A stretch of 34,189 nt of DNA from Candidatus Kapaibacterium sp. (GTDB lineage Bacteria > Bacteroidota > Ignavibacteria > Kapaibacteriales > UBA4661): assembly GCA_025358765.1 (NCBI GenBank), contig JANYIG010000115.1, positions 1 to 34,189 of the forward strand, given 5' to 3'. The translations under genes and the position numbers were made by a program. Below, one piece after another: positions 5,984-31,453 of this stretch; the first letter of the stretch is position 1, and each line of letters begins with the position of its first letter. The notes under the pieces are model-generated. The model was given only the letters and a program-made list of their open reading frames with translations. It made no database searches and was not told the origin of the DNA.

Positions 5984-7258
5984 TTAGTCGTACAGAAGAT
6001 ATTTTTTTCGCAACTCGCCGAACTCCTTCACGCCTTTGGTGGCGAATTTCCGTACTTCTTCGTCAGGGGATTTTTTCACGAACAAAAGGTCGAAGAGCTT
6101 ATCACTGCCCGCTACTTTGGTAAACATCGAGCGGAGATTGTCGGTGATGGATTTTGGTGCGAAGAACTCAGGATGCACCGCCCGCAAGGCAAGCATCAGC
6201 TCCAAACCCGCTGTAAACGGACGGAAGCGTGTTGCATCGGGGAAAAACGTGAGCAAAATGCCATTGCAATCCGTGTTAGCAAATTTATTGTAAAACGGAC
6301 GGAAGCGCGTGGGTACAAGCGCCAAACTATTCATTGGTGTTCGTCGAAGTGCTTCTAATACGAGGTCAGGGTTTAAAAGTGGTGAGCCAAGCAATTGAAA
6401 TGGAGAAGTAAAACCTACGCCTACGCTAAACAGCGATAACTCGCCTAACAGCCCTATGACTGCCATTCCACGCACCGCATCAATGCTGGGTACGTGTGGC
6501 GAGGTTGGAATCCACTGAAAATCGGTGTCTTCCCACGTCATCCAGCGTTGCCAACCTTCTGCTTTAACCACCGTAAGCTGGCATCTGCGCGGCTTGCCTG
6601 TGCTGTCGTGCGGAAGCCACCCTTCACCGTTGATGAGTTGAGCTAATTCAGCCAACGTACAGCCGTGAACGTAGGGAATCGGTATAATCCCCACAAACGA
6701 GGCAACCGTTGTGTCTAACACTGCGCCGTCCATGATTTTTCCGCCGAGTGGATTCGGTCTATCCAAGATTGTAAGCGGTTTGCCGAACTCTGCACAAGCA
6801 TCCATCACGTTATACAGAGTGCCGAGATAGGTATAGGGGCGAACCCCAACGTCTTGAATATCGAACACAACGGCATCACAAGCGGCGAGCATGGCTTTGG
6901 TGGGACGGCGCGTTTTGCCGTAAAGTGAGAACGAGTTGATGCCGTAAATCACATCGGTATCCTGCACAGCATCGCCCGCCCGTGCTAACCCGTAATAGCC
7001 GTGTTCTGGCGTTAGCACAGAAATAACTTTGCATGATTTTGCCGCCAGAAACGCATCAAGCGTCGAAGCTAATGTCCGCATTCTGCCGCTTTGGTTTGTG
7101 ACGAGCGTAATTTTCTGATTTTGGAACATTGAAAAATTTTGGCTGACCACAACATCAATTCCGTTTTTCACATCGTATCGGAAGGATTGTTGAGCGATGG
7201 CGCCGGGGGCAGCAGACAACATCACAGCAAGAAACAAACAAACGAAGCGCTGATTCAT
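5984..7258 (-). CDS. namZ: NamZ-like exo-beta-N-acetylmuramidase (DUF1343)
   Basis: DUF1343 proteins of the NamZ type remove terminal MurNAc from the non-reducing end of peptidoglycan chains or muropeptides, feeding cell-wall recycling. The 424-residue protein has a signal peptide (cleavage likely after AIAQ, near residue 23), so it acts outside the cytoplasm. Family blocks are LVTNQSG (52-58), TPEHGYYG (83-90), NSFSLYG (108-114), FDIQDVGVRPYTY (132-144), LDRPNPLGG (165-173) and HGCTLAELA (198-206). This order and spacing match the family closely. The ATG at 7258 gives a good signal peptide. It is convergent with sdhB and lies downstream of the LysM gene, separated from it by a terminator, so it probably has its own promoter. 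The symbol is by family, not by proven activity. Confidence 0.88.
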   Translation of the reverse strand: MNQRFVCLFLAVMLSAAPGAIAQQSFRYDVKNGIDVVVSQNFSMFQNQKITLVTNQSGRMRTLASTLDAFLAAKSCKVISVLTPEHGYYGLARAGDAVQDTDVIYGINSFSLYGKTRRPTKAMLAACDAVVFDIQDVGVRPYTYLGTLYNVMDACAEFGKPLTILDRPNPLGGKIMDGAVLDTTVASFVGIIPIPYVHGCTLAELAQLINGEGWLPHDSTGKPRRCQLTVVKAEGWQRWMTWEDTDFQWIPTSPHVPSIDAVRGMAVIGLLGELSLFSVGVGFTSPFQLLGSPLLNPDLVLEALRRTPMNSLALVPTRFRPFYNKFANTDCNGILLTFFPDATRFRPFTAGLELMLALRAVHPEFFAPKSITDNLRSMFTKVAGSDKLFDLLFVKKSPDEEVRKFATKGVKEFGELRKKYLLYD

Positions 7259-7300
7259 TAGGGCTCAATTCTGCGCTAAAAGTGATTCATAAAGGCAATA

Positions 7301-7328
7301 AAAAATCCCGTTTCAACAAGAAACGGGA
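7301..7328 (-). terminator. Rho-independent terminator of the LysM gene
   Basis: On the minus strand TCCCGTTTC (7328-7320) pairs perfectly with GAAACGGGA (7314-7306) across a five-base loop and is followed by a run of T (7305-7301 read as TTTTT). It lies 57 bases after the stop codon of the LysM protein. Confidence 0.88.
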
Positions 7329-7384
7329 CGGAAAACTTCGCTTACAAAAATACGAACGTGGCTGAAATATTACAGCACACGAAA

Positions 7385-8203
7385 TTAGTTATTCGCACCG
7401 TTTGTTCTGATGGGCAATTGCGGATTGCCGTTTTTGTCAAGCGTGATGCGCTTCGTGCGGTAATACTTGCGTTCTGCCTTAACTTCATCGTCTGTTTTTT
7501 CTGTTTTTGCCGGAATTTGCAATTGCTGTCCTGGGAAGATGATGTCAGGATTGCGGATGATCTCTTTGTTTGCAACCCAGATTTTGGGCCAAAGGAACGG
7601 GTCGTTATAGATTTCCTGCCGTGCGGAAATATTCCATAAACACTCACGATTTTCGGACCATGTACCAACAGTATAACCTTTGACCTTCTTTTCGCGATAG
7701 AGGCTTTTAATCTCGTTGCCGAGCGCGAGAACGCGGGGGTAAAATTCTGGTAGGACGGCGATTTTCTCTTTGCGAAGTGCGGTCAACTCATCATCAAGTG
7801 ATTTCACTTGGTCTTGACGTTCGAGCAATTGGTCTTCGGAGAGTTGTTTCATCTCACGGACTTTGCCTTCAAGGATTCCTAAGCGCTGACGGAATTTTTC
7901 AACATCTTCTTTGGTTGCGCCTATAAGCACATAAAGAGAGTTTTCGCAATCGGCAAGCTGTTGTTGAAGTTTGGGCAAATCTAATCGCGCTTTGTCGGCT
8001 TTATCGTTGACTTGCTTCAGTTGTGCTTCAAGGTTTGTTACGTTATCTCTGAGGTCTTTAATCCGAACATCACCTTCTTCTTTGGTGAGTTGCTCATCAG
8101 GCTTGTTTGGGTCGAGCGGTACTTGTTTTTGTTGTGCTTGCGCTTGTACGCTCCATGTTGCCAGCGTGAGCATCACGACTGGAACAACAAGTGTTTTCTT
8201 CAT
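7385..8203 (-). CDS. Secreted coiled-coil protein with C-terminal LysM domain
   Basis: This is a probable periplasmic peptidoglycan-binding protein of 272 residues. A signal peptide (MKKTLVVPVVMLTLATWSVQ, cut near AQAQQ) is followed by a long heptad-rich region, about residues 45-170, with many K, E, Q and L. A LysM module spans about 177-231 (from YTVGTWSENRECLW to FPGQQLQIP). Within the module, DPFLWPKIWVANKEII is the usual helix pair. The basic, Asn-rich tail has no known motif. LysM binds the GlcNAc-MurNAc backbone. The upstream lipoprotein gene, 65 bases away, also encodes a coiled coil, so the two may form an outer membrane-to-wall tether. That role is inference. Confidence 0.85.
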   Translation of the reverse strand: MKKTLVVPVVMLTLATWSVQAQAQQKQVPLDPNKPDEQLTKEEGDVRIKDLRDNVTNLEAQLKQVNDKADKARLDLPKLQQQLADCENSLYVLIGATKEDVEKFRQRLGILEGKVREMKQLSEDQLLERQDQVKSLDDELTALRKEKIAVLPEFYPRVLALGNEIKSLYREKKVKGYTVGTWSENRECLWNISARQEIYNDPFLWPKIWVANKEIIRNPDIIFPGQQLQIPAKTEKTDDEVKAERKYYRTKRITLDKNGNPQLPIRTNGANN

Positions 8204-8936: not shown

Positions 8937-10097
8937 ATGAGCAACCAGTCCGATTCTTCCTATATTCCACAAATTACCGGCATCCGTGCGATTGCTGCGT
9001 TTATGGTGTATGTGCATCATTTTCCGACGGGGCAGGAGATATTGCCGTCAGCATTGTTTCGGATGACATTAGAATTACACACCGGTGTGGGGTTGTTTTT
9101 TGTGTTGAGTGGTTTTTTGATTTATCAACGGTACTACGAATCTTGTACGTTTGAACGCTCGTGGTGGGGAAATTATACCAAAAACCGCGTGGCGCGTATC
9201 TATCCCATGTATTTTCTCCTCACATGTGCAACGTTACTTAACCGTGCGCTTCGTCACGGAGACGCAGGTGTTTTACTTTGGATATTAAATTTGAGTTTTT
9301 TTCGTGGATTTTCAAACGAGTTGTACATGTCCGGTATTTCGCAGGGTTGGACGCTGACGGTGGAAGAGTGTTTTTACTTTTCAGCCCCCGTGCTGTTTCT
9401 GTTATTTCGGCGTGTGAATTTCTGGTTGCCACTTTTGGGAATATATCTCATTGGAGTAGTATTGATGGCAGTTGGAGGCATAGCGAATGGTATGGGTTTG
9501 AATCCAATGGGCTTTTTTGAAGGCTTTCATTTTATGGCAACGTACACGTTTTTTGGTCGCTGTTTTGAGTTTTTTGCGGGTATGTTCCTGGCAAAATATA
9601 TGGCTGAACGCCGTTTATATGCTGTTCCGCAGGAACGCGGACGATTCACGTGGATAGCGCTTAGCGGCATAATAGGCTCGTTATGGCTCATGTCCACATT
9701 GCAATCACCAGAGTATCGTTACGGCATCCAGCATCCGCTCGGCATGGTTTTGAATAACGTTGCTCTTCCCGTGTGCTACGCGCTGCTTTTTTTCGGACTT
9801 GTCCGCGAGCGAACCGTTGTGCAGCGATTTCTCGCCACGCGCTTTATGGTGTTATTGGGAAAGAGTTCGTATATTTTTTACCTTATCCATATGGGTGTTG
9901 CACAAGCGCTGATAGCTCGTGTAGTCTGTCCAGCTACATTTACGCCTGTAACAACAATTCAATACATCGCACAATTTGTGTTACTCAACGTTGCTTCCAT
10001 TATTCTGTTCCTGTGTATCGAAGACCCGCTTAATCGCTTGGTTCGCCGCATCTGGAAGACAGGCTCGGCAAAGCCAACGTTTGAGGCAGTATCATAA
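8937..10097 (+). CDS. Acyltransferase-3 family membrane O-acyltransferase
   Basis: Members of the OafA/YrhL-type acyltransferase-3 family are many-pass inner-membrane enzymes that move acetyl or other acyl groups onto extracytoplasmic glycans (LPS, exopolysaccharide, peptidoglycan). The 386-residue length is typical of the family without a fused SGNH domain. Family features are TGIRAIAAFMVYVHHF at residues 13-28 with the conserved Arg and His pair, GVGLFFVLSGFLIY near 51-64, NRVARIYPMYF near 83-93, and QGWTLTVEECFYF near 140. The C-terminal EDPLNRLVRR is also typical. About ten hydrophobic segments are visible. A close paralogue lies at 16596-17732. A TPR-SASA esterase gene starts 36 bases downstream on the same strand, which suggests an operon. 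Confidence 0.88.
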   Translation: MSNQSDSSYIPQITGIRAIAAFMVYVHHFPTGQEILPSALFRMTLELHTGVGLFFVLSGFLIYQRYYESCTFERSWWGNYTKNRVARIYPMYFLLTCATLLNRALRHGDAGVLLWILNLSFFRGFSNELYMSGISQGWTLTVEECFYFSAPVLFLLFRRVNFWLPLLGIYLIGVVLMAVGGIANGMGLNPMGFFEGFHFMATYTFFGRCFEFFAGMFLAKYMAERRLYAVPQERGRFTWIALSGIIGSLWLMSTLQSPEYRYGIQHPLGMVLNNVALPVCYALLFFGLVRERTVVQRFLATRFMVLLGKSSYIFYLIHMGVAQALIARVVCPATFTPVTTIQYIAQFVLLNVASIILFLCIEDPLNRLVRRIWKTGSAKPTFEAVS

Positions 10098-10133
10098 CGA
10101 AGCTCACTACTACTTTTTATTATTTCACGCTCA

Positions 10134-12683
10134 ATGAACTATACTCAATCGAAAATTCGGTCTATCACACAGTCTATAGTAATGAAATCGGTCATCTCTT
10201 TTGTGGCTGTTATCTGCTCGCTTTTCCTGATAAACATATATTGGGCATCAGCGCAACAAGCCTCAACGAAGGCTGTGCAAGAAGTATTTAAAAAGGCAGC
10301 TGCAAGAATGATTGCGGGTGATTATCAAGGTGCGGTAGAAGGTTTTACCAAGGTACTCCAACTTGACCCAAAAAACATTGATGGGTATGTGAATCGTGGG
10401 ATTGCTCAACTACAGCTCCGGCACCCTAATGAAGCGTTGAGTGATGTGAATACGGCGTTACAGTTAGCTCCGGCTGCGAATAAAAACGCCAGAAGCGTGT
10501 TGCTGACTGCGCGTGGCAAATGTTATTTTAATGCTCAACGTCTCGCCGAAGCGTATCGTGATTTTACAGAAGCTATTCAACTTAATACCAAAAATGAAGA
10601 TGCGTATCTACAGCGTGGGACGCTGCGAGTTTTTCTCAAGGATTATACGAATGCTGTAGCTGACGTGACGCAAGCAATTCATTTGGACAATCGGTCAGCA
10701 CAATCGTATTTTGTTCGTGGCAATGCTAATCGCTATTTAGAAAAAATCAAGGATGCCGAGAAAGATTACACAGAGGCGATTCGTTTGAATCCTCAATATA
10801 TAGATTGTTATGTCAATCGAGGTACAGTCAGAGCAGATATGAAGGACTTTAAAGGAGCCATAGAAGATTTGAGTCATGCGCTTAGGCTAGATCCAAAGTT
10901 TCTATTAGGATACTCTAATCGTGCGGTTCTTAAATTTAATAGCGGCGATTATCGTGGGGCGGTTGAAGATCATAGCGTAGTTCTGAGCATGGATTCTAAT
11001 TACACCCCGTCATACCTCAACCGTGCAATGGCTTGGCAATCGCTCAAAGACTACAATCGTGCCGTTGCTGATTACAACGAGGTACTCAAACGCAACCCGC
11101 AAGATATTCAAGGGTTTTTGAATAATACGTCGGCTGTGAGCGCTAGGATGAATGAACAAAATTACACGTCTGTTTCTACATATGCGCTTCGTGGGCAAAC
11201 ACGGATTATGACGGGCGATACCGTAGGAGCGTGTGAGGATTTCCAAAAAGCGCTCACACTTGGTAATAATGCCATTTACAACCTTATTTCCAAATATTGT
11301 AACGCTCCTACTACGCTGCTCGTCTCTGGGTCGGCATTCCCGCGTTCGTTGCAATTTTATCCGCGCGATGCACAAGATTCCGCGACCATGCTGATAGAGG
11401 GAACGATTAACAGCCCTGCCGTTGTCTATGATTCCGTGTATGTCGATATCCAGAAAAACAACGTTGCTTACAAACGATTAGCAGCAACGCTTTCAAGCAA
11501 AGATGGGAAAGCAGCATTTTCCTTCCAGCCTAAAATCCATGCGGAGCTGAGTAATTATAGCCTTCGTTTGGGTGTAAAAAATGCCACCAAGGACACGGTG
11601 CTTGCCGTGCGTGATAGTATTGTTTGTGGCGATGCCCTCTTGGTAAGTGGTCAATCCAATATCATGCTTGGCGAAACGTGGAACGCGCCGGAGCGCCGCT
11701 TCCTGCGGACGTTTAATTGGGGAATTGGTGATAATATGTGGGCAATGGCAAATGCTGGCAATGAAGATAAAATCGGTGGTGTTGGTGCTGTGGGATTGCA
11801 AATAGGAAGTTCCATTGCTTCGCAATATAAAATCCCCGTTTGTATTATTAACGGCGGTATGGGCGCTTCCACCATAGAGCAGCATTTACGGATAAAACAG
11901 CGTCCATTTGATCCATTTACGCTGTATGGACGCACACTTTTGCGTACACGTGAAGCCGGGGTACTCTCTTCAATAAAAGCACTCGTTTGGTATCAAGGAG
12001 AATCGGATGCCGTTCCTAATTACTTTGAGCGCTTTATTGATTTGCATCGTGGGTGGAAAGAGGATTATTCCGCACTCAAAAAAATCTATCTTGTACAGAT
12101 TCGCCCTTCCGATTGTGGGCAACAGGATCAAGACTCTTTGCGTGATATGCAACGTGGTTTGGGTGGGTTTAGTAAAGTTGAAGTGTGTGCTTCGGTGGCT
12201 GTACCCGGACATGATGGTTGCCACTACTCGCCAGAAGGCTACAAAGCGCTCGGCACACAAATATTCCGTTTGATGGCTCGTGATTTTTACGGTTCGAGCG
12301 ACACAGCTGGTATTGGCTCACCTAACCTCAAAAAAGCATCGTTCGTAACAAAAGAACGCAGGGAAATTGTGCTGGACTTTGCTACTTCAACCACGACAAC
12401 GCTTATTGTGCCTCACGATACGGTCGGGGGAGTAGTGAATACTCCCATAAAAGAATATTTTTTCGTAGATGGCAAAAGTGGCATTGTGGAAAATGTTGTT
12501 GCTGTTGGTAATAAGGTACGGCTCACGCTCAAACAGCCGATGGACGGCAATCTCCATAAACTGTCGTATCTGCCGAATATGTATTACAACGGTATGACGG
12601 TTGTGTACGAAGGTCCGTGGTTGACAACGCAGCGCGGTGTGGGTGTTCTTACATTCAAGAGCGTCACTATTGACAATCCGTAA
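10134..12683 (+). CDS. Secreted TPR protein with C-terminal SASA (sialate O-acetylesterase-like) domain
   Basis: This 849-residue protein joins a TPR array to an SGNH-type carbohydrate esterase. A signal peptide or anchor (residues 17-41) precedes about nine TPR units (roughly 47-390; typical pieces are AYRDFTEAIQLNTKNEDAY and DYTEAIRLNPQYIDCYVNRG). A beta-rich linker (about 400-495) leads to the SASA domain (about 498-720). Catalytic-type blocks are GQSN with Ser508, WYQGES at 619-624, and HDGCH at 693-697, which holds the Asp/His pair. SASA enzymes remove O-acetyl groups from sialic acid or other sugars. The substrate here is unknown. An alternative start at 10182 (M17) would give a more compact signal peptide; neither start has a good ribosome binding site. 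A paralogue lies at 27931-29973. Confidence 0.85.
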   Translation: MNYTQSKIRSITQSIVMKSVISFVAVICSLFLINIYWASAQQASTKAVQEVFKKAAARMIAGDYQGAVEGFTKVLQLDPKNIDGYVNRGIAQLQLRHPNEALSDVNTALQLAPAANKNARSVLLTARGKCYFNAQRLAEAYRDFTEAIQLNTKNEDAYLQRGTLRVFLKDYTNAVADVTQAIHLDNRSAQSYFVRGNANRYLEKIKDAEKDYTEAIRLNPQYIDCYVNRGTVRADMKDFKGAIEDLSHALRLDPKFLLGYSNRAVLKFNSGDYRGAVEDHSVVLSMDSNYTPSYLNRAMAWQSLKDYNRAVADYNEVLKRNPQDIQGFLNNTSAVSARMNEQNYTSVSTYALRGQTRIMTGDTVGACEDFQKALTLGNNAIYNLISKYCNAPTTLLVSGSAFPRSLQFYPRDAQDSATMLIEGTINSPAVVYDSVYVDIQKNNVAYKRLAATLSSKDGKAAFSFQPKIHAELSNYSLRLGVKNATKDTVLAVRDSIVCGDALLVSGQSNIMLGETWNAPERRFLRTFNWGIGDNMWAMANAGNEDKIGGVGAVGLQIGSSIASQYKIPVCIINGGMGASTIEQHLRIKQRPFDPFTLYGRTLLRTREAGVLSSIKALVWYQGESDAVPNYFERFIDLHRGWKEDYSALKKIYLVQIRPSDCGQQDQDSLRDMQRGLGGFSKVEVCASVAVPGHDGCHYSPEGYKALGTQIFRLMARDFYGSSDTAGIGSPNLKKASFVTKERREIVLDFATSTTTTLIVPHDTVGGVVNTPIKEYFFVDGKSGIVENVVAVGNKVRLTLKQPMDGNLHKLSYLPNMYYNGMTVVYEGPWLTTQRGVGVLTFKSVTIDNP

Positions 12684-16546: not shown

Positions 16547-16595
16547 CAAAATTGTATCTTTTCCCCCTTTATTGATATTCTACGATTACGTTTAT

Positions 16596-17732
16596 ATGGC
16601 TCAAGCACAACCGTCTTTAACTATTCCGTCGCTCACGGGTATCCGTGCCATTGCTGCGTTTCTGGTGTTTTTTCACCATTATCAGTTCTTCAAATTTCGT
16701 TTGCTCAATGAATTCCACATCGGGGTTAGCATATTTTTCGTGCTCAGCGGGTTTCTAATTTATTACCGTTATTACGAATCGTCAACATTGTCGGGTGCGT
16801 GGTGGAAAACCTATATCATCAACCGAGCCGCACGCATATACCCAATGTACTTTCTGCTTACCTGCGCGACGTTTGTCGTTGAGTATGTGCAAAAATCAAC
16901 ATTCAATGCGCCTGTATTTTTCCTCAATATTACGTTTTTGCATGGTTTTTTTAAAGACTACGGAGGATTCACCGGCATTCCTCAAGGATGGACGCTCACG
17001 GTGGAGGAATGTTTCTATTTTCTTGCACCACTTATTTTTACGATACAACGCAAAGGAAAATTCTGGTTGCCTATTTTGGGTATCTATGCAGTTGGTCTGG
17101 TTTTCTTATATATTGGGAGGGTTCTTTTGGCAGGTACGCCGGGAGGATTCTGTGCTTCATTTGAATTTGTTGCCATATACACCTTTTTCGGCAGGTGTTT
17201 TGAGTTTTTTGTTGGCATGTTTGCCGCACGTCTTGTTTTGCAATCACGGAAACGCTCAAATACGGCTGGTAAAAGCCGCGCACGGGAGTTGAAGCTGCCG
17301 AACGGCACAGCGACGTGGTGTGGTATCGTGGGCATGAGTATTATTGTATCGTGCATGTCCATCTTTCAGGACTATCCGCATTGGATTAGTTTATTCCATA
17401 CCGCAGGACTGGCATTGAACAATCTTGTTTTACCATTATTTATTGGAATATTGCTTTGGGGGCTTGCGCGTGAGGTAACGCCTGTCAGTCGTTTTTTAGG
17501 CTCGAAGCCAATGCTCGTTCTGGGTAAAAGCTCCTACCTCTTTTATTTGCTGCATTTGGGTCCGCTTGCAGGTCTTCTTCAAATACTCACGACCGACCAA
17601 ACAAGCGTAATGTATGTTGTTCTTGTGCTATTTATTACCGTCATCGCCGTCTCCATTGCACTGTTTTACTTTGTTGAAGACCCGCTCAATCGTATTCTTC
17701 GCAAGCTCTTGGGCGGCACACCACAAACGTAG
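16596..17732 (+). CDS. Acyltransferase-3 family membrane O-acyltransferase (second copy)
   Basis: This is a paralogue of the protein at 8937-10097, with the same blocks: LTGIRAIAAFLVFFHHY, GVSIFFVLSGFLIYYRYYES, NRAARIYPMYFLLTCATF, PQGWTLTVEECFYFLAPL, GKSSYLFYLLHLG and VEDPLNRILRKL. I chose the ATG at 16596 (378 residues) because it gives an N-terminus of the same length as the paralogue; an in-frame ATG at 16572 would add eight residues. It follows recG by about 50 bases and meets the epimerase gene tail-to-tail with a 10-base gap. There is no esterase gene directly beside this copy. A role in O-acylation of an envelope glycan is likely by family; donor and acceptor are unknown. Confidence 0.87.
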   Translation: MAQAQPSLTIPSLTGIRAIAAFLVFFHHYQFFKFRLLNEFHIGVSIFFVLSGFLIYYRYYESSTLSGAWWKTYIINRAARIYPMYFLLTCATFVVEYVQKSTFNAPVFFLNITFLHGFFKDYGGFTGIPQGWTLTVEECFYFLAPLIFTIQRKGKFWLPILGIYAVGLVFLYIGRVLLAGTPGGFCASFEFVAIYTFFGRCFEFFVGMFAARLVLQSRKRSNTAGKSRARELKLPNGTATWCGIVGMSIIVSCMSIFQDYPHWISLFHTAGLALNNLVLPLFIGILLWGLAREVTPVSRFLGSKPMLVLGKSSYLFYLLHLGPLAGLLQILTTDQTSVMYVVLVLFITVIAVSIALFYFVEDPLNRILRKLLGGTPQT

Positions 17733-17742
17733 AGGCGAGGAG

Positions 17743-18813
17743 TTACACTATTTCCACACCCAAACCCGGTTTGTCGTTCGGGCGCATAATGCCATTTTCA
17801 AGAATAAATCCGTCCGTAACCACATCCCGCGCCAAATCAAGGCTACCATCGAGGTCAATATACTTAGTGTTTGCGCTGGAAAATGCCGTGTGTAGTGCGG
17901 CTGTGATGCTTACGATGCTTTCATCGTTACAACCCCACATCAGTTCCACGCCGGCGTTTTCAGCAATGCGAGCGATTTCAAGCCCTTTCGAGACACCGCC
18001 GCATTTCATCAATTTGACATTAAAAATTCCACACGCTGCTGGCTTCTGAACGAGATTGAGCGCGTCTTTAGGGCTAATAAGCGTTTCGTCGGCGGCAATA
18101 GTGCGACGAATTTCCTCCGGCAGCAATCGCATGTCTTCCAGAGCGCTTACAGGAATAGGTTGTTCGTTAAGTTCGATGTTCAACTTCCGCGTTCTCTCAA
18201 AAAATTCAATCATCTGCGCGGCGTTGTATCCTTGATTGGAATCAATCCGAATTGTGATGCTGCTGCCGTGCACCTCGCGCAGCTTTGTAAGCCGTTCCAC
18301 GTCTTCTTCCAACGACTCGCCCGTTTTTACCTTCAGCACCGTAAATTTACGTTCAATATATTCCTTTGCCTCTGCGAGTGTTTCCGCTACGTTTTTGATG
18401 CCGATGGTGATAGACGTAGGCAAACTCTCGACTTCGCGCCCTAAAAACTCCACAAGCGGTACACCAAGCCATTTTGTGAAGGCATCCCACAGCACAATGT
18501 CGAGCGCAGCACGAACGCCGGGCGTAACGGGAAATCGCGTAGAAACTTCGCTGCAAAGCCTGTGAATCGTCCGAATGTCTCGTCCAACAAGCCACTCTAC
18601 GTTTTCAGCGTGTGTCAAAATGCGCTCCGAATCCTCCAGCGATTCACCTACCACGTAATGCGACGGATTACACGTGCCAATAGCGTGAATGCCGTTATCA
18701 AGCTCAAGTACAACGACCATGTTTTCTACGTGGCTTGTGGTCTTGTACGCAATGGTGTAGGGGCGGGTAAGTTCGAGGTTTTCCTTGCGGACAGCGATAC
18801 GTTTGATGTTCAT
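17743..18813 (-). CDS. Enolase-superfamily dipeptide epimerase / N-acetyl-glutamate racemase (AEE or DgcA type)
   Basis: The 356-residue protein has every catalytic feature of the muconate-lactonising branch of the enolase superfamily. The KxK motif is LKVKTG with Lys161 and Lys163. Metal ligands are Asp191 (RIDSNQGY), Glu217 (NEQPI) and Asp242 (ADET). The opposite base is Lys267 (NVKLMKCGG). The DxD motif is Asp320 and Asp322 (IDLDGS), typical of L-Ala-D/L-Glu epimerases. Such enzymes recycle murein dipeptide. Because the start overlaps the stop of a DUF1611 gene by four bases (ATGA), the alternative is DgcA, which racemises N-acetyl-D-Glu made by DgcN. Family membership is certain; the choice between the two reactions is inference. 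Confidence 0.9.
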   Translation of the reverse strand: MNIKRIAVRKENLELTRPYTIAYKTTSHVENMVVVLELDNGIHAIGTCNPSHYVVGESLEDSERILTHAENVEWLVGRDIRTIHRLCSEVSTRFPVTPGVRAALDIVLWDAFTKWLGVPLVEFLGREVESLPTSITIGIKNVAETLAEAKEYIERKFTVLKVKTGESLEEDVERLTKLREVHGSSITIRIDSNQGYNAAQMIEFFERTRKLNIELNEQPIPVSALEDMRLLPEEIRRTIAADETLISPKDALNLVQKPAACGIFNVKLMKCGGVSKGLEIARIAENAGVELMWGCNDESIVSITAALHTAFSSANTKYIDLDGSLDLARDVVTDGFILENGIMRPNDKPGLGVEIV

Positions 18814-19880
18814 GCTTTTTGTTCCAAAATGCGAGTTTTAATGAGGGTTATGATTTCATCTACGCCGTCTTCAATCGGTAGGATGACAGGAATACCAAGT
18901 TCTGCACGGAATTGTTGTTGGTATTTTCGTGCTTCGTCGAGCGTCAAATCGCTATTGTTGAGCGTGACGGCGAGTGTTTCTGCACCATAAAAACGGATAA
19001 GTTCAATCTCGTTTTTGAGCGGTGGAAGTGGCGTGGTTGTGCCTTTGAAACACTGCCGTGCAGGGCTGTGTTGCAACACAACGTGTTTCGCACCGCCGGA
19101 GACAATAAACTCTGCACCACAAGGACCAAGTGGGTTACGAAGCGCGGATTGCCCTTCAAGGAACATCACGTCGGGCTTTACGTCGTTATAACAGTTCACA
19201 ATCGCTGTTTCCAACTCGCCAGAAACAAAGTCGTTCAGCGTGGAATCGAACACGAAGCCGTACTTACTGCCTTGCATCCAGCCTGTTTGTCCCGTATAAA
19301 TCATTTCCGCCTTCAAACCCGCATTACGCGAGGCTTGCATCAGGAACCGAGCAGTTGTGCGCTTTCCAAGTGCACAATCCGTCCCAATCACGGCAATACG
19401 CGGAGCCGGAACGTCGTGAATCCGCCCTGACCAATACTCCATCTCCTCGACAATCTTGGGTTTGCGAACATCTACAAGCGAGACACCGTGCTGTTTGGCA
19501 AGTTCCACATACTCCGGCATGTTCGTCAGAAATTCGTGCAACCCATTCACGATGCCGATACCACCGCGAATGGCTTCTTTCAGGATATCCATAATATCGG
19601 GTGGGAATTTACCACCCGCGAAGGCAAGCCCTATAATACAGAAATCAATCTTCTCGGTACAATTTTTTTGCGCCTCCGCAATAGAAGCGTAAACAGGGAT
19701 GTTCCGATGTTTGCCGTCCAGAACCTCACCAGCGTCTTTGCCAGCATTTTTTGTATCAATAATAGCCTTGATAGTGAACCGTTCCGTCCCACGAATCAGA
19801 CCGTGTGCAGTTTTGGCAGAACCAGAATCCAACATGCCGTGCGTTAGCACAATTGCGTTATTACCCACAACATTACCCAT
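18810..19880 (-). CDS. DUF1611 family protein, DgcN-like (probable D-glutamate N-acetyltransferase)
   Basis: The 356-residue protein belongs to DUF1611. It has an N-terminal Rossmann-like domain (MGNVVGNNAIVLTHGMLDSG, then CIIGLAFAGGKFPPD at 81-95) and a C-terminal P-loop domain with VIGTDCALGKRTTA (164-177), GQTGW near 197-201, and DVMFLEGQSAL. I chose the ATG at 19880, with GGAAAG about ten bases upstream, over the longer frame to 20036, which overlaps the sensor kinase gene. In marine Proteobacteria DgcN acetylates D-Glu and its partner DgcA converts the product to N-acetyl-L-Glu. The four-base overlap with an enolase-superfamily gene here repeats that pairing. Activity is inferred from family and context. 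Confidence 0.82.
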   Translation of the reverse strand: MGNVVGNNAIVLTHGMLDSGSAKTAHGLIRGTERFTIKAIIDTKNAGKDAGEVLDGKHRNIPVYASIAEAQKNCTEKIDFCIIGLAFAGGKFPPDIMDILKEAIRGGIGIVNGLHEFLTNMPEYVELAKQHGVSLVDVRKPKIVEEMEYWSGRIHDVPAPRIAVIGTDCALGKRTTARFLMQASRNAGLKAEMIYTGQTGWMQGSKYGFVFDSTLNDFVSGELETAIVNCYNDVKPDVMFLEGQSALRNPLGPCGAEFIVSGGAKHVVLQHSPARQCFKGTTTPLPPLKNEIELIRFYGAETLAVTLNNSDLTLDEARKYQQQFRAELGIPVILPIEDGVDEIITLIKTRILEQKA

Positions 19881-19920
19881 AACGTAAGAGCTTTCCTGTT
19901 TGATACGATAAATGATAGTA

Positions 19921-22900
19921 TTATTTCTTGCTTGGAGAGGGTTTTGATTGTGGTGATGACGACGGTCGTGTTGTAGGCAATTCGATAATGAACGTTGCGC
20001 CAGCACCAATTTCGCTTTCGCACCAGACACCCCCATCCATCATTTCCACAAGCCGTTTGACGATGGACAATCCCAATCCTGTTGCGTGTTCGCCGCCCGT
20101 AGGCTGCGCTGAAAGCCGTGCAAATTTACCAAAAAGTTTTGACTTATCATCTTCCGATAAGCCCGGACCCTCATCTCTCACGCACACTTGCATAGATGGT
20201 AATTCGTAACTTGTGGTTTGTGGATGCTTTATTGTTTTAGCCTTCCCCTTGTCCACCGAAACCCAAATATTCTTGCTGTGCGGCGAGTATTTAACGGCAT
20301 TCGAGACAAGATTTTCGACGACCTCCACGGTAGCATTATAATCAGCATATACAAAGGCTTCGTCGGATATGTCTGTTTGAAAATGAAGATTAATGAGCTT
20401 TTCTTCAGCGCGAACTTTATAATCACTCACGACTTCATTCACAAGTTCCACAATCCGAACATTTTGCATGACCAAATTCATCTTGCCGGATTCAATGGCG
20501 TTCACGTCCAAAAGATTCGTAATCGTCGCCCGCATCCGCCGTGCTACGCTTTGCAGGTGACTGAGTTGCTCCAAAATATCCTTCATTGTCATGTTGCTGT
20601 GATATTGCTCAATGATGGAGGCGCTCATCATAATGCCCGTGAGTGGGTTTTTCAGATCATGCGCGGCAATGCCCAAAAATTCATTCTTTTCCTCATTAAG
20701 CTGGATAAGGCGCTCATTTTGCCATGTTATTTCATCGTTTCTGGATTGTAGCTCCAGCGTACGCTCTTGCACAAGGCGTTTTAATTCTTCATTACGATGT
20801 TCAATAAAACCAACACGCCATTTGAAACTAACAAAAACGCAACTTGCAAATATGAGCAGCGCAAGAGCACGAAACCAAATCGTTTTCCACCACGGCGGGT
20901 GGATAATAATATGAAGTATTGTTTCGGCACCCGCAGGAGTCCATACGCCATCAAACGTTGCCGCACGTATCCGCAACGTATAGGTTTTGCCATCAAGATT
21001 TGTGTAACTTGCTTCACGCTTGGTTCCGAGGTCAATCCAGTTGTCGTCGAATCCATCCAACTTGTATATATATCGTGTCCGTTCCGGCAAAATGAAGCTC
21101 AAAAGCGCAAACTCTACGGAAAAAAATGAATCCTCGTAGGAAAGATGAATTTCGCGAGCTTCCGAGATGGATGAATCAAGCGTGACCGATGTATTGAACT
21201 TCCTAAAATCGGTGAAAACGAGTGGCGGTACATAGGTATTCTGGCGAATACTATCGGGGTGGAACATATTAAATCCCGCAATACCAGCAAAATATAGCAT
21301 TCCTTGACGATTTTTGAAACACGCATTTTGGTTGAATTCATTGCTCTGTAAACCGCTGTGAGCATCATAGTTCTGCACCATACCATTTGAAGGCGTAAAG
21401 CGGCACAGCCCGCCGATAGTACCGAGCCAGAGATTGCCGTATTCATCATCCAATATGCTACAAATCGCATTGCTCGGCAGTCCGTCCTTTTGGCGAAATA
21501 CGATGAATGTATTTTGCGTAGGGGTAAAGCGATTAAGCCCGCTATGCGTTCCCACCCAAAGCGTACCGGTGCGGTCTTCAAGGATAGAGAGAACAAAGTC
21601 ATCGCTGAGACTCTGAGGATTTGCGGGGTCATTGCGGTAGGTCGTAAATGTTTTTGTTGTACGGTCGAACTTATTCAAGCCGCCGCCCCGTGTGCCAATC
21701 CACAAAATGCCTTGTTTATCCTCGTAAATTTTACGAACGGCGTTAATGCTAAGACTGTGCGGATCGCCAACAATATTTTTATAGGTTGTGCTTTCGCCGT
21801 TGGCAGGGTTGAAATGACATAGACCATCGTTGGTGCCGAGCCAAAACATCCCCCTTGCGTCTTCGTGGATGGCATAGACATCATCATTGCTGAGGCTTTG
21901 AGGGTTAAGTGGATTATGCCGAAACACAGTAAAACTACGGCTTTTGGGGTCGAACTTATTCAAGCCGCCGCCAAATGTCCCCACCCAAAGCACTCCGTTG
22001 CGGTCTTCATGCAGTGTCCACACAAGGTTTTTACTCAAGCTGTGCGGGTTTCCGATTATGGTTTTGTAGGTAGTAAACGCACCAGTGTTGGGATTGAGCA
22101 TCTGCAAGCCACCGCCATAAGTTCCCATCCAAATCATACCTGAGCGGTCTTCGCAGATCGCAAGCGTGATATTTACGGTGCGGTCGGTAGTATTGGTATT
22201 ACGAATCGTTCTGAATTTATGTGCCGTGCGGTTGAAGTAATTCACGCCTACCCCCTCCGTACCGAACCAGATACCGCCGGATTTGTCTTCGTAGATGCTT
22301 ACAATTGCATCACCATTCAAACTTTCCGGCGTGCTGCTGTCATTCTTAAATGTGGCGATAGCACTATTGGTTGGATTGATACTCTGCAAGCCACCACCGT
22401 GCAGACCGACCCAAATGAGACCGGTTTTATCCTTCCAGACCGACCGGGCATTGCTTCCAGAGCCTTGCACTGTGGTGAAGCGCATCGTAGAACAATCAAG
22501 CCGTACCAAACCATTATCGGTGGCGAGCAGGAGAATTCCCGAACGATCTTCTCGAATGCTCCAAACCTCGTTGCCAAATGGGGCGCTGGTTTGGAATGTC
22601 AGCCATGAGCCATTTTTAGGGTTAAAGCGATTTAGTCCACCACCCTCAGTTCCCACCCACACTATACCAAAAGTATCCTCAAACACGCATCGAACCTTAT
22701 TATTACTCAGGCTTTGGGCGCTGCCTGGTTGATGAGCGAATATCTCGCATCGTTGACTCACTCGGTCTATGCCTATAAGCCCAGCATCTGTACCCACCCA
22801 AAAGCGATCGCCGCTACCTTCACAAAAAGCGAAAACATCCGTGCCACCAAGATTCAGAATACTTTTGCACTCCCACGACGATGCACGGAATTTTTCCGTA

Positions 22901-23277
22901 ATTCGGTCAAACATGCAGACACCGCCACCGCGTGTGCCAATCCATAATACCCCAGAACGGTCTTCGTATAAGGCTTGAATATAGCTATTAGGAAGGGCGG
23001 TGGAGTCAGCACGATTGCTACGGAAGGTTGTGATTGTGTAGCCGTTGTAACGATTCAAGCCATCCTGTGTGCCGAACCACATAAATCCACGATTGTCTTG
23101 TATAATGCACTCAACAGAACTTTGTGATAGACCCTGTTCAACGCTAAGATGGCTGAATGCGACGGTAAGCGGTTGTGCAGGAAGACCTATTACGAACACA
23201 ATTGATAACAGCGTTGTAACGCAGATAGCAGCGTGCACAAAGCAGAAATATTCTAATGGCAATCTATTAACGTTCAT
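19921..23277 (-). CDS. Beta-propeller sensor histidine kinase (Reg_prop, Y_Y_Y, HisKA, HATPase)
   Basis: The 1118-residue protein is a membrane sensor kinase. A signal/anchor segment (13-34) precedes a periplasmic region with fourteen repeats around the core (L/I)W(V/I/F)GT, for example at about 66, 112, 159, 206, 383, 432, 480, 527, 575 and 617; fourteen fits two seven-bladed propellers. A Y_Y_Y domain spans about 710-795 and a membrane helix about 800-818. A coiled coil leads to HisKA with phospho-acceptor His873 (AAHDLKNP), then a HATPase with an N-box near 989-995, DEGPGL at 1035-1040 and GLGL at 1067-1070. There is no receiver or AraC domain, unlike hybrid Bacteroides sensors, so a separate response regulator is needed; none is in the window. 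It lies 40 bases upstream of the DgcN-like gene and is probably co-transcribed with it. Confidence 0.92.
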   Translation of the reverse strand: MNVNRLPLEYFCFVHAAICVTTLLSIVFVIGLPAQPLTVAFSHLSVEQGLSQSSVECIIQDNRGFMWFGTQDGLNRYNGYTITTFRSNRADSTALPNSYIQALYEDRSGVLWIGTRGGGVCMFDRITEKFRASSWECKSILNLGGTDVFAFCEGSGDRFWVGTDAGLIGIDRVSQRCEIFAHQPGSAQSLSNNKVRCVFEDTFGIVWVGTEGGGLNRFNPKNGSWLTFQTSAPFGNEVWSIREDRSGILLLATDNGLVRLDCSTMRFTTVQGSGSNARSVWKDKTGLIWVGLHGGGLQSINPTNSAIATFKNDSSTPESLNGDAIVSIYEDKSGGIWFGTEGVGVNYFNRTAHKFRTIRNTNTTDRTVNITLAICEDRSGMIWMGTYGGGLQMLNPNTGAFTTYKTIIGNPHSLSKNLVWTLHEDRNGVLWVGTFGGGLNKFDPKSRSFTVFRHNPLNPQSLSNDDVYAIHEDARGMFWLGTNDGLCHFNPANGESTTYKNIVGDPHSLSINAVRKIYEDKQGILWIGTRGGGLNKFDRTTKTFTTYRNDPANPQSLSDDFVLSILEDRTGTLWVGTHSGLNRFTPTQNTFIVFRQKDGLPSNAICSILDDEYGNLWLGTIGGLCRFTPSNGMVQNYDAHSGLQSNEFNQNACFKNRQGMLYFAGIAGFNMFHPDSIRQNTYVPPLVFTDFRKFNTSVTLDSSISEAREIHLSYEDSFFSVEFALLSFILPERTRYIYKLDGFDDNWIDLGTKREASYTNLDGKTYTLRIRAATFDGVWTPAGAETILHIIIHPPWWKTIWFRALALLIFASCVFVSFKWRVGFIEHRNEELKRLVQERTLELQSRNDEITWQNERLIQLNEEKNEFLGIAAHDLKNPLTGIMMSASIIEQYHSNMTMKDILEQLSHLQSVARRMRATITNLLDVNAIESGKMNLVMQNVRIVELVNEVVSDYKVRAEEKLINLHFQTDISDEAFVYADYNATVEVVENLVSNAVKYSPHSKNIWVSVDKGKAKTIKHPQTTSYELPSMQVCVRDEGPGLSEDDKSKLFGKFARLSAQPTGGEHATGLGLSIVKRLVEMMDGGVWCESEIGAGATFIIELPTTRPSSSPQSKPSPSKK

Positions 23278-23339
23278 GATGATGACATCGGAAAGAATTG
23301 ATTGTTATTGTGGAACAGCCGACAGAATCGTATCTACAC

Positions 23340-26300: not shown

Positions 26301-26633
26301 CATCACGAGCAAGTCGCCGTTGTTCGTCTTCAGAAAGCCTTTGATATAAGGGTTCGGAAGATTGTCATAGCTTACACAGCGTTTTCCGTCGAAACGCAAG
26401 AGTCCCGCATCGGTGGCTATCCAGACAAAGCCACGCTCGTCTTGATAGGTTGCCTTCACTAAGTCAGTCGGGAGGCTGTTGCCGATGTTATAGAATACAA
26501 CGCGCAGGTCTTGAGCAGAAAGGACAAAAAAAGAAGCGAAGAAAAAGAGAGAAAGCACCATGAATACCACATAAAAAGCACTCGACACGCCAGAGCGGGT
26601 AGAGGTTCGTACTACGGGAAACATTGCTTTCAT
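23340..26633 (-). CDS. Beta-propeller sensor histidine kinase (second copy)
   Basis: This protein (1097 residues from the ATG at 26633; an in-frame start at 26711 would add 26) has the same layout as its neighbour: N-terminal hydrophobic anchor, propeller repeats (such as GFVWIATDAGLLRFDG and GQLWVGTTQGVLF), Y_Y_Y domain, membrane helix, coiled coil, HisKA with AAHDLKNP (His864 in this numbering) and a HATPase with DEGPGL and STGLGLSIV. The kinase cores of the two proteins are very similar while the propellers differ, which suggests duplication followed by change of ligand. It too lacks receiver and DNA-binding domains. It lies 62 bases upstream of the first kinase on the same strand. No good ribosome binding site supports either start. 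Confidence 0.9.
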   Translation of the reverse strand: MKAMFPVVRTSTRSGVSSAFYVVFMVLSLFFFASFFVLSAQDLRVVFYNIGNSLPTDLVKATYQDERGFVWIATDAGLLRFDGKRCVSYDNLPNPYIKGFLKTNNGDLLVMTDMGILKIQDDADTTRFTVVLPGSVVRTDSTILYPKSFYQDRKGILWIGEPDAVVRYADGRMKRYRFAEEFSSDNFARSFSFFEDKQGHVLMFSRRGCALFCFDPVADNFKRIPLQATSPSSVPVPNAPSAKPFRHVDAIFCRSDDRWWVGTDGGVFEVQIQQTADSPPSGWTARRLAEGKDISYIAADANGTIYVGAWYSGLYTFNQAEGVLERLKAVGSQTINDIKLTANNNLWVSADDGIALVQPTRFRHLDIPFKRPYIQHISLAPNGDVLATDGINILKLNSTVVQPALQQGSTSYKSILTTKEEEWGIFLSLAHDGDDLLVGTSLGYILRLHNGNCTTVARIGNQAIFFLLVDEKRQIWACQQAVEEVIKIKPNGQVEHYGRQKGITTIPQVVSHAPDKTIYVGGKENTFYRYDAATDTFADISIQVPLKTTTALNVNDIAVSADTTIWIGTTYGLLRRKGGIIEKIALPKEIARQNITSVKIAPDGSIFFTTEQTMNFYIGKQLLTLDLRSGNSTMTISYRNMVRDREGQLWVGTTQGVLFMPNSAMHYQKTPAPVLLSVQVNSTPVRQLVLEHRYEAGAYLEVHFASLSYPPDKIRYQTRVVGLDSAWSETSYESYTILPLLNSGSYTFQIRAQQTGSLWSDPTEFPFIVQPHWYQTWWAYMLDVVGWFGLVYGAARLRSRHLERRNRALKKIVNERTAEIQHQIAILDDQAREIELVNAQLHEQNVLLQELNTEKNDFLAIAAHDLKNPLTVIMMSSSMVQQYAYQMKVEEVVAQMTNVERTSKRMRDIIMNLLNINALETGKFTFTPTRLDIVETARQVAEDYRERATNKDITLYFQPSHPQIFVFADSTATTEILENLVSNAIKYSPHGRNVWISVTKEQEARNREHNSALQPVPHCLILVKDEGPGLSEEDMSNLFGKFVKLSARPTGGEHSTGLGLSIVKKMVESMKGKVWCESELGHGATFIVELPIMDEYG

Positions 26634-26731
26634 CACACGTCTATGATTGGGGAATGAATAGCTTCGAGAGATATGCGGTTGTCCGGGGGGAACGAAATAT
26701 GATATTATCACGCCATCATCTGCACATCAAT

Positions 26732-26788
26732 ATACTGCCGTTCAAACATCATTGCAAACGAATTTGCGGTGAATTTGAACGGCAGTAT
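26732..26788. repeat. Perfect 15-bp inverted repeat with inner stem-loop
   Basis: ATACTGCCGTTCAAA (26732-26746) is the exact reverse complement of TTTGAACGGCAGTAT (26774-26788). Between them GCAAA-CGAA-TTTGC forms an inner five-pair stem with a tetraloop (26754-26767). It lies 16 bases after the BON gene stop codon and about 100 bases before the second kinase start. There is no U-tract on either strand. It may end transcription of the BON gene, protect mRNA ends, or be a small palindromic repeat. Confidence 0.6.
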
Positions 26789-26804
26789 TATGTGATTGAG
26801 ACGC

Positions 26805-27374: not shown

Positions 27375-27407
27375 AAAAAACCTCGTAGGTTAATGTAAAA
27401 AATAAAT

Positions 27408-27426
27408 AAACGATACATTATCGTTT
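27408..27426 (-). terminator. Weak hairpin after the SnoaL-like gene
   Basis: AAACGAT (27408-27414) and ATCGTTT (27420-27426) form a perfect seven-pair inverted repeat with a five-base spacer. Read on the minus strand it is followed by a T-rich stretch (ATTTATTTTTT), and it lies 18 bases after the SnoaL-like stop codon. The stem is AT-rich; an operator for the BON gene is an alternative. Confidence 0.4.
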
Positions 27427-27443
27427 CATTTCGGTCATTTCTT

Positions 27444-27905: not shown

Positions 27906-27930
27906 AGATTCCTTCTCGTAGTTTAATGAG

Positions 27931-29973
27931 TTATGGTTGGTTTTGAACAGGGATACTAAAAAACGATAGGACACCAACTCCGCGTTTATTGATGAGCCAC
28001 GGACCGCGATACGAAACCCGCGTGCTATGATAGAATTTATCGGGTAAATAACCCACTGACACAATATTTATAGGCTGTTTCAGCCGCAAAAAAACGATAT
28101 TACCCTGTGTTCGCACACCGCTGAACACGTGCGGCATTGGAGCGATTTTCCCTCGCTCCGACACCTCTGCGAAAAAATACTCATGCAACGGCTGTGCGAC
28201 ATTAGCGACAACAACATCAGCGGTCGTCACAATTTCGCTGTTCCGTGGGGAAAACACAAGCGCAATTTCTGTTTTCTCCTTGCTTGTGTAATATGCTTTG
28301 CGAATCGTTGGCGAAGAAATATTGCTCGTGTCCGTCGAACCGTAAAAATCACGGGCTATCAAGCGAAATATTTGTTGTCCCAGTGCGATGTAGCCGCTAT
28401 CCGCATAGTGACAACCATCGTGAAACGGCACCCCCACCGTTGAAAATACCTCTACGCCTTTGAGCGAATCTTGCAATCGGCGCTGAATCTCGCGGAGCAT
28501 GATGTGAGGGAATTCATTGCAGTTGGAAGGGCGAATCTGTGCGGCATACACGCGCCGAAGGTTCGGATAATCGCGTTCCCACGCCTTGTACAACCGTTCA
28601 AAATCGTTGTAATAGCCGCGAGCATCGTTCGACTCGCCTTGATACCACACAATCGCTTTCACAGCACTTTGCAAACCAGCCGACTTCGTGCGATAGAGCG
28701 TTCGCCCATACAAATTTGATTGCCAGAGATGGTCTTCATGCGGAAGATGGTCTTGTATAGGCGTTGCTCCAATAGCGGATTTGACAATGCAGACGGGAAC
28801 GCGATAGGTTTGCACTATCAAGCGCTGTAATTCTCCTGCCAAACCGCCCACATGCTCCTCTTGATCAATAGTAGTAGCCGTAACAGTATTCGTGGCGGAA
28901 GAACGCTGCCAAATAATATTATCTCGTTGCAATGAGATGGTACGCAAAAACTGATCATCGGGCGAAGCGGGAACACCCCCAACCACCGCATTCGACTGTC
29001 CGGCAACCATCAACACATCCCCGCAAACGATGCTATCCCGCACAGCAATTACCGTATCTTTCGTCGCAGCTGTAAGCCCAACCTGCACCCCGTATTCGCT
29101 CAATTCCGCATGGAGTATTGGTCGGAGATGAAATGTTGCTATGCCCGCCTTATATTGCAACTGCTGTGATAGTCGTTGAATGCACGTGCCGTTTTTGAAC
29201 AATCGAACGTACGCAGAATCATACCCTCTCAACGAAATACTTCCCGACAAACTCATTTGTGCGCTGTCGTTAGCTCCACGCGGGTACAGTTGCCGCTCCG
29301 CCGGAAATAATTCGTCAAGTACAACAGGAATCACCGAGCGACATGATGCCCGAAGTGTTTCAAACAAGACAACATCTACCATACCCTTTCGGCGAGCCAT
29401 TTCGCATTCTTCGCACCCCTCTTTTACGGCTCCCGATTGAATTCTGGCTATCGCACGATATAGGTGCAAAGAGGCATACCTCAGAGGTTCGTTGTCCAAC
29501 AATGTCGTGAAATTGGGAATCGCTTGTGCATATCGTTTTGCCGCAATATGCATCAACCCCGAAAATAGTGCTATATCGGTTTCAAGGTGTTTAAAAGTAG
29601 AAAGCTGCTGTGGATATAGTTTGACGAGCAATGGTTGAAGCTGGAATGCTTTCGTAAAATCAAGAATAGCTTCTTGATAACTGTCAACTTTGCTATATGC
29701 TATACCTCGACGAAAATACGCCTCTGCGTGGTTAGGCGCTATATCAATCACTTCTGTGTAATGGATAATAGAGCTTTTGTAATCGCGCTTCAAATCGTAA
29801 TCCATCACGGCTTGGCTCCAAACACGCTCCATTGGCGAAGATTCTCTGGATTGTGCCATCAAACGCGCATTATTGGTGGCGCATACCATACAAGCCCCAA
29901 GAACACAAGATGCTACCGCACGACAAGTCAAGATTCTTAGTATGAGTGATAGGTCGGTTGAATACAATTTCAT
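27931..29973 (-). CDS. Secreted TPR protein with C-terminal SASA domain (second copy)
   Basis: The 680-residue protein is a paralogue of the one at 10134-12683 with a shorter TPR part. An N-terminal hydrophobic segment (about 10-32) precedes three or four TPR units (about 48-200; the clearest is DYKSSIIHYTEVIDIAPNHA). A beta-rich linker (about 225-315) leads to the SASA domain with GQSN (Ser327), WYQGES (443-448) and HDGCH (518-522). The sequence leading to the catalytic Ser, AVRDSIVCGDVLMVAGQSN, is almost the same in both copies. An O-acetylesterase role on an envelope or environmental glycan is likely by family. No acyltransferase lies beside this copy; its neighbours are a NAGPA-type glycosidase gene upstream and the SnoaL-like gene downstream. 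Confidence 0.84.
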   Translation of the reverse strand: MKLYSTDLSLILRILTCRAVASCVLGACMVCATNNARLMAQSRESSPMERVWSQAVMDYDLKRDYKSSIIHYTEVIDIAPNHAEAYFRRGIAYSKVDSYQEAILDFTKAFQLQPLLVKLYPQQLSTFKHLETDIALFSGLMHIAAKRYAQAIPNFTTLLDNEPLRYASLHLYRAIARIQSGAVKEGCEECEMARRKGMVDVVLFETLRASCRSVIPVVLDELFPAERQLYPRGANDSAQMSLSGSISLRGYDSAYVRLFKNGTCIQRLSQQLQYKAGIATFHLRPILHAELSEYGVQVGLTAATKDTVIAVRDSIVCGDVLMVAGQSNAVVGGVPASPDDQFLRTISLQRDNIIWQRSSATNTVTATTIDQEEHVGGLAGELQRLIVQTYRVPVCIVKSAIGATPIQDHLPHEDHLWQSNLYGRTLYRTKSAGLQSAVKAIVWYQGESNDARGYYNDFERLYKAWERDYPNLRRVYAAQIRPSNCNEFPHIMLREIQRRLQDSLKGVEVFSTVGVPFHDGCHYADSGYIALGQQIFRLIARDFYGSTDTSNISSPTIRKAYYTSKEKTEIALVFSPRNSEIVTTADVVVANVAQPLHEYFFAEVSERGKIAPMPHVFSGVRTQGNIVFLRLKQPINIVSVGYLPDKFYHSTRVSYRGPWLINKRGVGVLSFFSIPVQNQP

Positions 29974-31418: not shown

Positions 31419-31453
31419 AACGACACCTTCCACGTGATAATGTTTACGGTGAC

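What the first reader, a model, noticed from the sequence alone, without database searches (positions are those of the whole stretch)
8937..12683. Possible O-acyl writer/eraser pair: acyltransferase-3 next to a TPR-SASA esterase
A membrane O-acyltransferase is followed after 36 bases by a secreted esterase of the sialate-O-acetylesterase fold, with intact GQSN, WYQGES and HDGCH blocks. Opposite activities in one operon suggest controlled O-acylation of a surface glycan. Fusion of a nine-unit TPR array to a SASA domain is an unusual architecture and may dock the enzyme to a partner.
Basis: partly seen in the sequence, partly recalled or inferred. Interest (0 to 1): 0.55.

Follow-up and report, generated by a model that had tools for sequence, protein, structure and literature searches.

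The report
Acyltransferase gene paired with TPR-esterase
A bacterium from an uncultured group carries, side by side, a gene for an enzyme that adds acyl groups to sugars and a gene for an exported, repeat-tethered enzyme built like those that remove them; close relatives keep the two genes together often enough to suggest joint work on one envelope sugar chain, but neither activity has been measured.

Summary
In detail: an acyltransferase-3 gene (AT3a, 8937-10097) is followed after 36 bases by a protein of nine TPR units plus an SGNH/SASA domain (10134-12683) with intact GQSN, WYQGES and HDGCH. The catalytic part has a full SIAE/CE20-like acetylesterase fold with beta-sandwich flanks. The core is widespread; the TPR fusion was found only in the window's GTDB family. 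AT3a lies directly upstream, same strand, in 5 of 9 genomes of that family (two genera) that hold both genes, and in none of 20 genomes of other families with the core. In four relatives AT3a sits in a glycan-decoration cluster, and in two of these the TPR-SASA gene ends it. A shared envelope-glycan substrate is plausible. Writer and eraser is the likeliest reading, not shown. A bolder one is open: the SGNH protein is the missing partner of a stand-alone AT3. Its oxyanion-hole Gly is Ala in 4 of 5 AT3-adjacent copies, against 6 of 81 other cores; suggestive, post hoc, not diagnostic. The window also holds a second AT3 (16572-17732) and a second, short-TPR SASA (27931-29973, minus) that are not next to each other.

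The parts
8937..10097 (+). AT3a, stand-alone acyltransferase-3 (386 aa)
   Evidence: PF01757 E 1.6e-23; R-X10-H at 17-28 and RXXR at 84-87; orthologue at 52-55% in 8 of 8 genomes of the sister genus g3
10098..10133 (+). 36-base gap, no terminator-like site
10134..12683 (+). TPR-SASA protein (849 aa), SIAE/CE20-like esterase core behind nine TPR units
10257..11300 (+). TPR superhelix, residues about 42-389, break at 323-343
   Evidence: Pfam TPR hits; model helices
11313..12680 (+). beta-sandwich / SGNH / beta-sandwich catalytic core, residues 394-849
   Evidence: aligns to 7kmm, 9h4u, 9ega at Z 25-27
11655..11657 (+). catalytic Ser508 (GQSN, block I; Gln507 next to it)
   Evidence: Ser in 86 of 86, Gln in 85 of 86 distinct cores
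11865..11867 (+). Ala578 at the oxyanion-hole Gly position (Gly199 of Fl8CE20_II)
   Evidence: alignments; role of Gly199 from PMC12313940 passages
11994..12002 (+). block III QGE (621-623)
12114..12116 (+). Cys661, co-conserved with Cys696; disulfide next to the active site inferred
   Evidence: Cys at each column in 84 of 86 distinct cores
12213..12224 (+). block V Asp694-xx-His697
16572..17732 (+). AT3b, second stand-alone AT3, 25 nt after recG, last gene of the same plus-strand run
   Evidence: PF01757 E 9.7e-27; 45% to AT3a
27931..29973 (-). second SASA protein, short TPR (680 aa), not next to an AT3

Best explanation
AT3a moves acyl (most likely acetyl) groups across the inner membrane onto an envelope glycan, and the downstream TPR-SASA protein, exported and held by its TPR superhelix to a protein partner of the envelope, removes or trims such groups from the same glycan, so that the pair sets the final degree of O-acylation. 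Shown: gene pair, families, intact catalytic blocks, fold, partial conservation of the pair, glycan-gene context of AT3a in relatives. Inferred: co-transcription, periplasmic location, acetyl as the group, hydrolysis rather than transfer, TPR docking, same substrate.
For: Pair on one strand with AT3a directly upstream in G000, G003, G004, G008, G009, flanks different in G000 from the others, proteins only 52-55% (AT3a) and 41-44% (esterase) alike. All AT3-adjacent esterases lie in one 13-row clade of long-TPR copies, support 99/94. AT3a relatives in G003, G004, G005, G007 lie in a cluster with SxtJ and NodU-like carbamoyltransferase, with methyltransferase and GT4 scanned in G004 and seen by sequence in G003; the esterase gene ends it in G003 (two copies) and G004. 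Core fold as in known acetylesterases (Z 25-27), complete triad. Precedent: PatA-PatB-Ape1, acyltransferase and esterase in one operon (PMC12148441 and PMC6174289, passages).
Against: AT3a and the esterase are apart in 4 of 9 family genomes (G002, G005, G006, G007). Several family genomes carry two to five esterase copies for one AT3a. In the window genome the pair is away from the glycan cluster, whose SxtJ and carbamoyltransferase lie on other contigs. The core occurs without AT3a beside it in other families. The oxyanion-hole Gly is Ala in the window copy, which may lower or change activity. No activity or transcript data.
Confidence: 0.5

Rival explanations
1. Split O-acyltransferase: AT3a only carries the acyl group across the membrane, and the separate SGNH protein takes it on its serine and passes it to the glycan, as the fused SGNH domain does in OatA/OafB and PatB does for PatA. 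The TPR array would hold it at the membrane complex.
For: AT3a has no fused SGNH domain. Published work leaves open whether stand-alone AT3 proteins need an unknown SGNH partner (PMC9558356 section 4; PMC9833829 passage). The residue at the oxyanion-hole Gly is Ala in 4 of 5 AT3-adjacent copies versus 6 of 81 other distinct cores (post hoc, two of the four are near-copies); PatB and pneumococcal OatA also lose the block II Gly, to Ser or Asn in PatB (PMC12148441). G004 and G008 have one AT3a and one esterase each, adjacent.
Against: No SASA-family protein is described as a transferase in the passages read (PMC9487903). Non-Gly residues at that position also occur in 11 of 81 cores not next to an AT3a, among them flavobacterial ones, and G004's adjacent copy keeps Gly. 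AT3a is present without an adjacent esterase in 4 of 9 genomes. The cluster in G003 holds an MBOAT and a weakly matching GDSL/SGNH protein of its own.
Confidence: 0.15
2. Independent neighbours: the esterase is a general envelope or nutrient-glycan acetylesterase and AT3a serves another glycan; closeness is a remnant of local gene order.
For: Split in 4 of 9 genomes and absent outside the family; the paralogue at 27931-29973 has no AT3 neighbour; related cores occur in bacteria such as Mariniflexile fucanivorans.
Against: The pair persists across two genera while the genes around it differ; the expected chance of AT3a lying directly upstream of an esterase copy is about 0.0003-0.0008 per genome, with gene and copy counts that I assumed.
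Confidence: 0.3
3. Peptidoglycan O-acetylation and de-O-acetylation pair.
For: NamZ (5984-7258), a protein with a weak LysM match and a DUF1611 / mandelate-racemase-family pair, possibly muropeptide recycling, lie in the same window.
Against: In relatives AT3a sits with GT4, methyltransferase and carbamoyltransferase genes, not with cell-wall genes; the core is of another SGNH family than PatB and Ape1 (recalled for Ape1).
Confidence: 0.05

Closest known systems
CE20 carbohydrate acetylesterases (XacXaeA 7KMM, Fl8CE20_II 9H4U, PpCE20_II 9EGA) and mammalian SIAE
   Same: beta-sandwich / SGNH / beta-sandwich order, Gln in block I, QGE in block III; structural Z 22-27 over about 385-405 residues
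   Different: no inserted ancillary domain (about 30 residues between block II and WYQGES), block V is DxxH not DxH, oxyanion-hole Gly replaced by Ala in the window copy, TPR array in front
PatA-PatB-Ape1 peptidoglycan O-acetylation operon
   Same: acyl carrier across the membrane and SGNH proteins in one operon, transferase and esterase together
   Different: membrane part is MBOAT, not AT3; SGNH families differ; no TPR array known to me
AT3-SGNH fusions OatA, OafA/OafB
   Same: AT3 with R-X10-H and RXXR plus an SGNH-fold domain outside the membrane
   Different: here two separate proteins; SGNH part is of the SASA type with the inverted oxyanion hole
Stand-alone AT3 glycan O-acylases (Oac, IcaC, WecH)
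   Same: single AT3 domain without SGNH domain
   Different: no SASA neighbour mentioned in the passages read

Membership tests
Acyltransferase-3 (PF01757) | profile match over the curated cut-off | tested here: met
   83.7 bits, cut-off 31
Acyltransferase-3 (PF01757) | R-X10-H in TM1 and RXXR after it | tested here: met
   17-28 and 84-87; motif definitions from PMC9833829 and PMC9558356
Acyltransferase-3 (PF01757) | ten transmembrane helices | tested here: inconclusive
   crude hydropathy finds six; model from five sequences has pLDDT 59
SASA (PF03629) | profile match; Gln beside the block I Ser; QGE in block III; block V His | tested here: met
   46.6 bits, cut-off 24.8; columns; definitions from PMC9487903
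SASA (PF03629) | O-acetylesterase activity | not testable with these tools
   needs a bench assay
[quoted passage not shown]
   model 394-845 aligns across 7kmm, 9h4u, 9ega; definition PMC12313940
CE20 | oxyanion hole of a main-chain Gly and the block I Gln | tested here: not met
   Gln507 present, Gly replaced by Ala578 in this copy; Gly in 71 of 86 distinct cores
CE20 | block V DxH | tested here: not met
   D694-G-C-H697, DxxH
AT3-SGNH fused acyltransferase | both domains in one chain | tested here: not met
   two ORFs with a stop and 36 bases between
PatA-PatB-Ape1 operon | MBOAT membrane component | tested here: not met
   PF01757 is the only Pfam family matched by the window gene at 0.01

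The most novel reading that the evidence does not exclude
The TPR-SASA protein is the separately encoded transfer partner of a stand-alone AT3: a split AT3/SGNH O-acyltransferase in which a widespread glycan acetylesterase was turned into a transferase, tied to its membrane partner by a TPR array, with loss of the oxyanion-hole Gly as a mark of the change.
Probability: 0.15. Interest if true: 0.7.

Novelty: new variant of a known kind. Interest (0 to 1): 0.35.

Why it matters
Whether stand-alone AT3 proteins act alone or need an SGNH partner is stated as open in two papers (PMC9558356, PMC9833829). A partly conserved gene pair of a stand-alone AT3 and an exported SGNH protein gives a concrete case to test, whether the second protein turns out to be partner or eraser. 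It also shows a glycan acetylesterase core that carries a TPR array in one bacterial family where relatives carry a lectin-like domain or nothing.

Tried and rejected
Plasmid records hold no relative of the core. A first AT3 profile, built from close relatives only, found just AT3a/AT3b-type genes (its 14 hits listed), so the neighbour test was repeated with a 19-sequence profile (27 hits) and rests on Pfam PF01757 for the 20 genomes of other families. The idea that relatives are exported by type IX secretion while the TPR form is not: the genome has 131 Por-tail matches, but only 2 of 38 members match Por_Secre_tail at 1e-3, and of nine tails of relatives tested two match clearly and one marginally, so the contrast is only partly supported. 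AT3a structure: low confidence, not searched further. The core model was also as close to a cyanophage tailspike (9vyh, Z 26.9, tied with the CE20 rows); shared fold only. The Gly-to-Ala association was found after looking at the data and treats related rows as independent. Literature: 'tetratricopeptide' with 'sialate O-acetylesterase' and 'acyltransferase' gave one paper, off topic by its title and abstract start; 'acyltransferase 3' with 'sialate O-acetylesterase' and 'operon' gave none; 'Kapabacteria' with 'polysaccharide' and 'acyltransferase' gave none; 'standalone AT3' with 'partner protein' and 'SGNH' gave PMC9833829 only. Papers were read as passages; PMC9558356 section 4 was read in full.

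Full report
What is there. The window (contig C71 of a 4.86 Mb, 362-contig genome) carries AT3a at 8937-10097 and, 36 bases on, an 849-residue TPR-SASA protein at 10134-12683. AT3a matches PF01757 over its length and has the two motifs reported for AT3 proteins, R-X10-H and RXXR (motif definitions). The second protein has an N-terminal hydrophobic stretch that reads by eye as a cleavable signal, TPR units, and a SASA match that starts inside the Pfam profile, after block I. Its model (26-row alignment, mean pLDDT 88.3) shows eight TPR helix pairs, a low-confidence break at 323-343, a ninth pair with a cap, then a strand-rich region, the alpha/beta SGNH part and a second strand-rich region. Residues 394-845 align with the CE20 acetylesterases 7kmm, 9h4u, 9ega at Z 25-27 and with mammalian SIAE at about 22. 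AT3a heads a run of plus-strand genes: TPR-SASA, DUF3995, an NmrA-like protein, recG (named from recall, not scanned) and a second AT3; none of the nine terminator-like sites found lies in the gap between the pair.

The family. The catalytic core was found in 29 of 99 genomes searched: 9 of 10 of the window's GTDB family and 20 of 89 others of the order. A contig scan gave 66 named loci in Kapaibacterium/Ignavibacteria, other Bacteroidota, Planctomycetota, Fibrobacteres, Kribbella, Acidimicrobiales and others; the nearest are labelled Candidatus Kapaibacterium or Ignavibacteria, which places the window only roughly. In 86 distinct cores, Ser is kept in 86, the block I Gln in 85, the block V His in 85 (one row is cut before it), the block V Asp in 83, Cys661 and Cys696 in 84 each; the cysteine pair suggests a disulfide by the active site, not checked on coordinates. 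Of 38 full-length members scanned, 38 match SASA, 17 TPR_2 and 7 Laminin_G_3. With a TPR profile made from the window protein itself, hits occur only in the window's family; inside it two short members (L039, L043) have none, two are cut at a contig start (L040, L045) and one falls under the threshold (L054). So the TPR fusion is a family-level feature, not a one-off.

Is AT3 a regular neighbour? An AT3a orthologue is present in 9 of 10 family genomes, the exception being 70% complete and also without the core. AT3a lies directly upstream on the same strand in 5 of those 9: G000 (window), G003, G004, G008, G009. In G002, G005, G006 and G007 it lies elsewhere, inside its contig with other genes on both sides. 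Gaps cannot be fixed exactly because starts are ambiguous, but a plausible start lies within about 85 bases of the AT3a stop in all five. In the tree of 47 cores all AT3-adjacent rows fall in a 13-row clade of long-TPR copies (99/94), the window copy being sister to the other 12; the label, which there includes the second tandem copy of G003, needs four changes, and 4 of 500 shuffles are as low. One gain with later splits is the simplest story, not proven.

Glycan context. In G004 the gene before AT3a is a GT4 glycosyltransferase and the one before that a methyltransferase, with touching ends. SxtJ and NodU-like carbamoyltransferase genes lie within about 12 kb of AT3a in G003, G004, G005 and G007; G003 also has an MBOAT and a weak GDSL-like match there. 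In G003 and G004 the TPR-SASA gene follows AT3a at the end of this cluster; in G005 and G007 a TerD-domain gene and an RNA-methyltransferase-like gene follow instead. I scanned the GT4 and methyltransferase only in G004, saw close sequences in G003, and infer them in G005 and G007 from size and position. In the window genome the SxtJ and carbamoyltransferase genes are on other contigs.

Eraser or partner? Every characterised SASA or CE20 enzyme in the passages read is an esterase, and the triad here is complete, which favours an eraser; PatA-PatB-Ape1 is the precedent for joining both acts in one operon. The partner reading rests on the lack of an SGNH domain in AT3a, on the stated open question about stand-alone AT3 proteins, and on one residue: the main-chain Gly of the CE20 oxyanion hole (Gly199 in Fl8CE20_II, aligned) is Ala578 here. 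It is Ala in 4 of 5 directly AT3-adjacent copies and in 6 of 81 other distinct cores; counting Ser too, 11 of 81 others lack the Gly. Fisher p is 0.0005 for Ala alone and 0.003 for any non-Gly; after merging the near-identical G008 and G009, 0.003 and 0.013. This was found post hoc, rows are related, the adjacent G004 copy has Gly, and several cores without AT3 lack the Gly. It is a hint.

Verdict. Observation confirmed; interpretation partly supported. The pair is real and partly conserved inside one family, the shared-glycan idea is plausible, and the direction of the second enzyme's chemistry is open. Filed as a new variant of a known kind: an SIAE/CE20-like core that fails two CE20 features in this copy, with a TPR array and an AT3 neighbour.

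Noticed in passing
L041:3427-8303 (G005) and L034:6486-11470 (G007): Short-TPR SASA paralogues follow directly, same strand, a KdpD-type histidine kinase (PF02702 E about 1e-73), overlapping in L041.
   Followed up: partly
window 19921-29973: The second SASA is followed on the minus strand by DUF4440, a BON protein and two histidine kinases with Reg_prop/Y_Y_Y sensor parts.
   Followed up: no
window 5984-8203 and 17743-20036: NamZ exo-muramidase, a protein with a weak LysM match, and a DUF1611 / mandelate-racemase-family pair: possible peptidoglycan recycling theme.
   Followed up: no
window 30027-31433: NAGPA phosphodiester glycosidase directly upstream of the second SASA on the same strand.
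   Followed up: no
G005:C337, 7226-8206 (+) and 34919-35899 (-): Two PF01757 hits with identical scores on opposite strands of one contig: inverted duplication or assembly artefact.
   Followed up: no
model of window 10134-12683, residues 415-849: Best structural row is a cyanopodophage tailspike (9vyh, Z 26.9), suggesting the same esterase fold on a phage tail.
   Followed up: no
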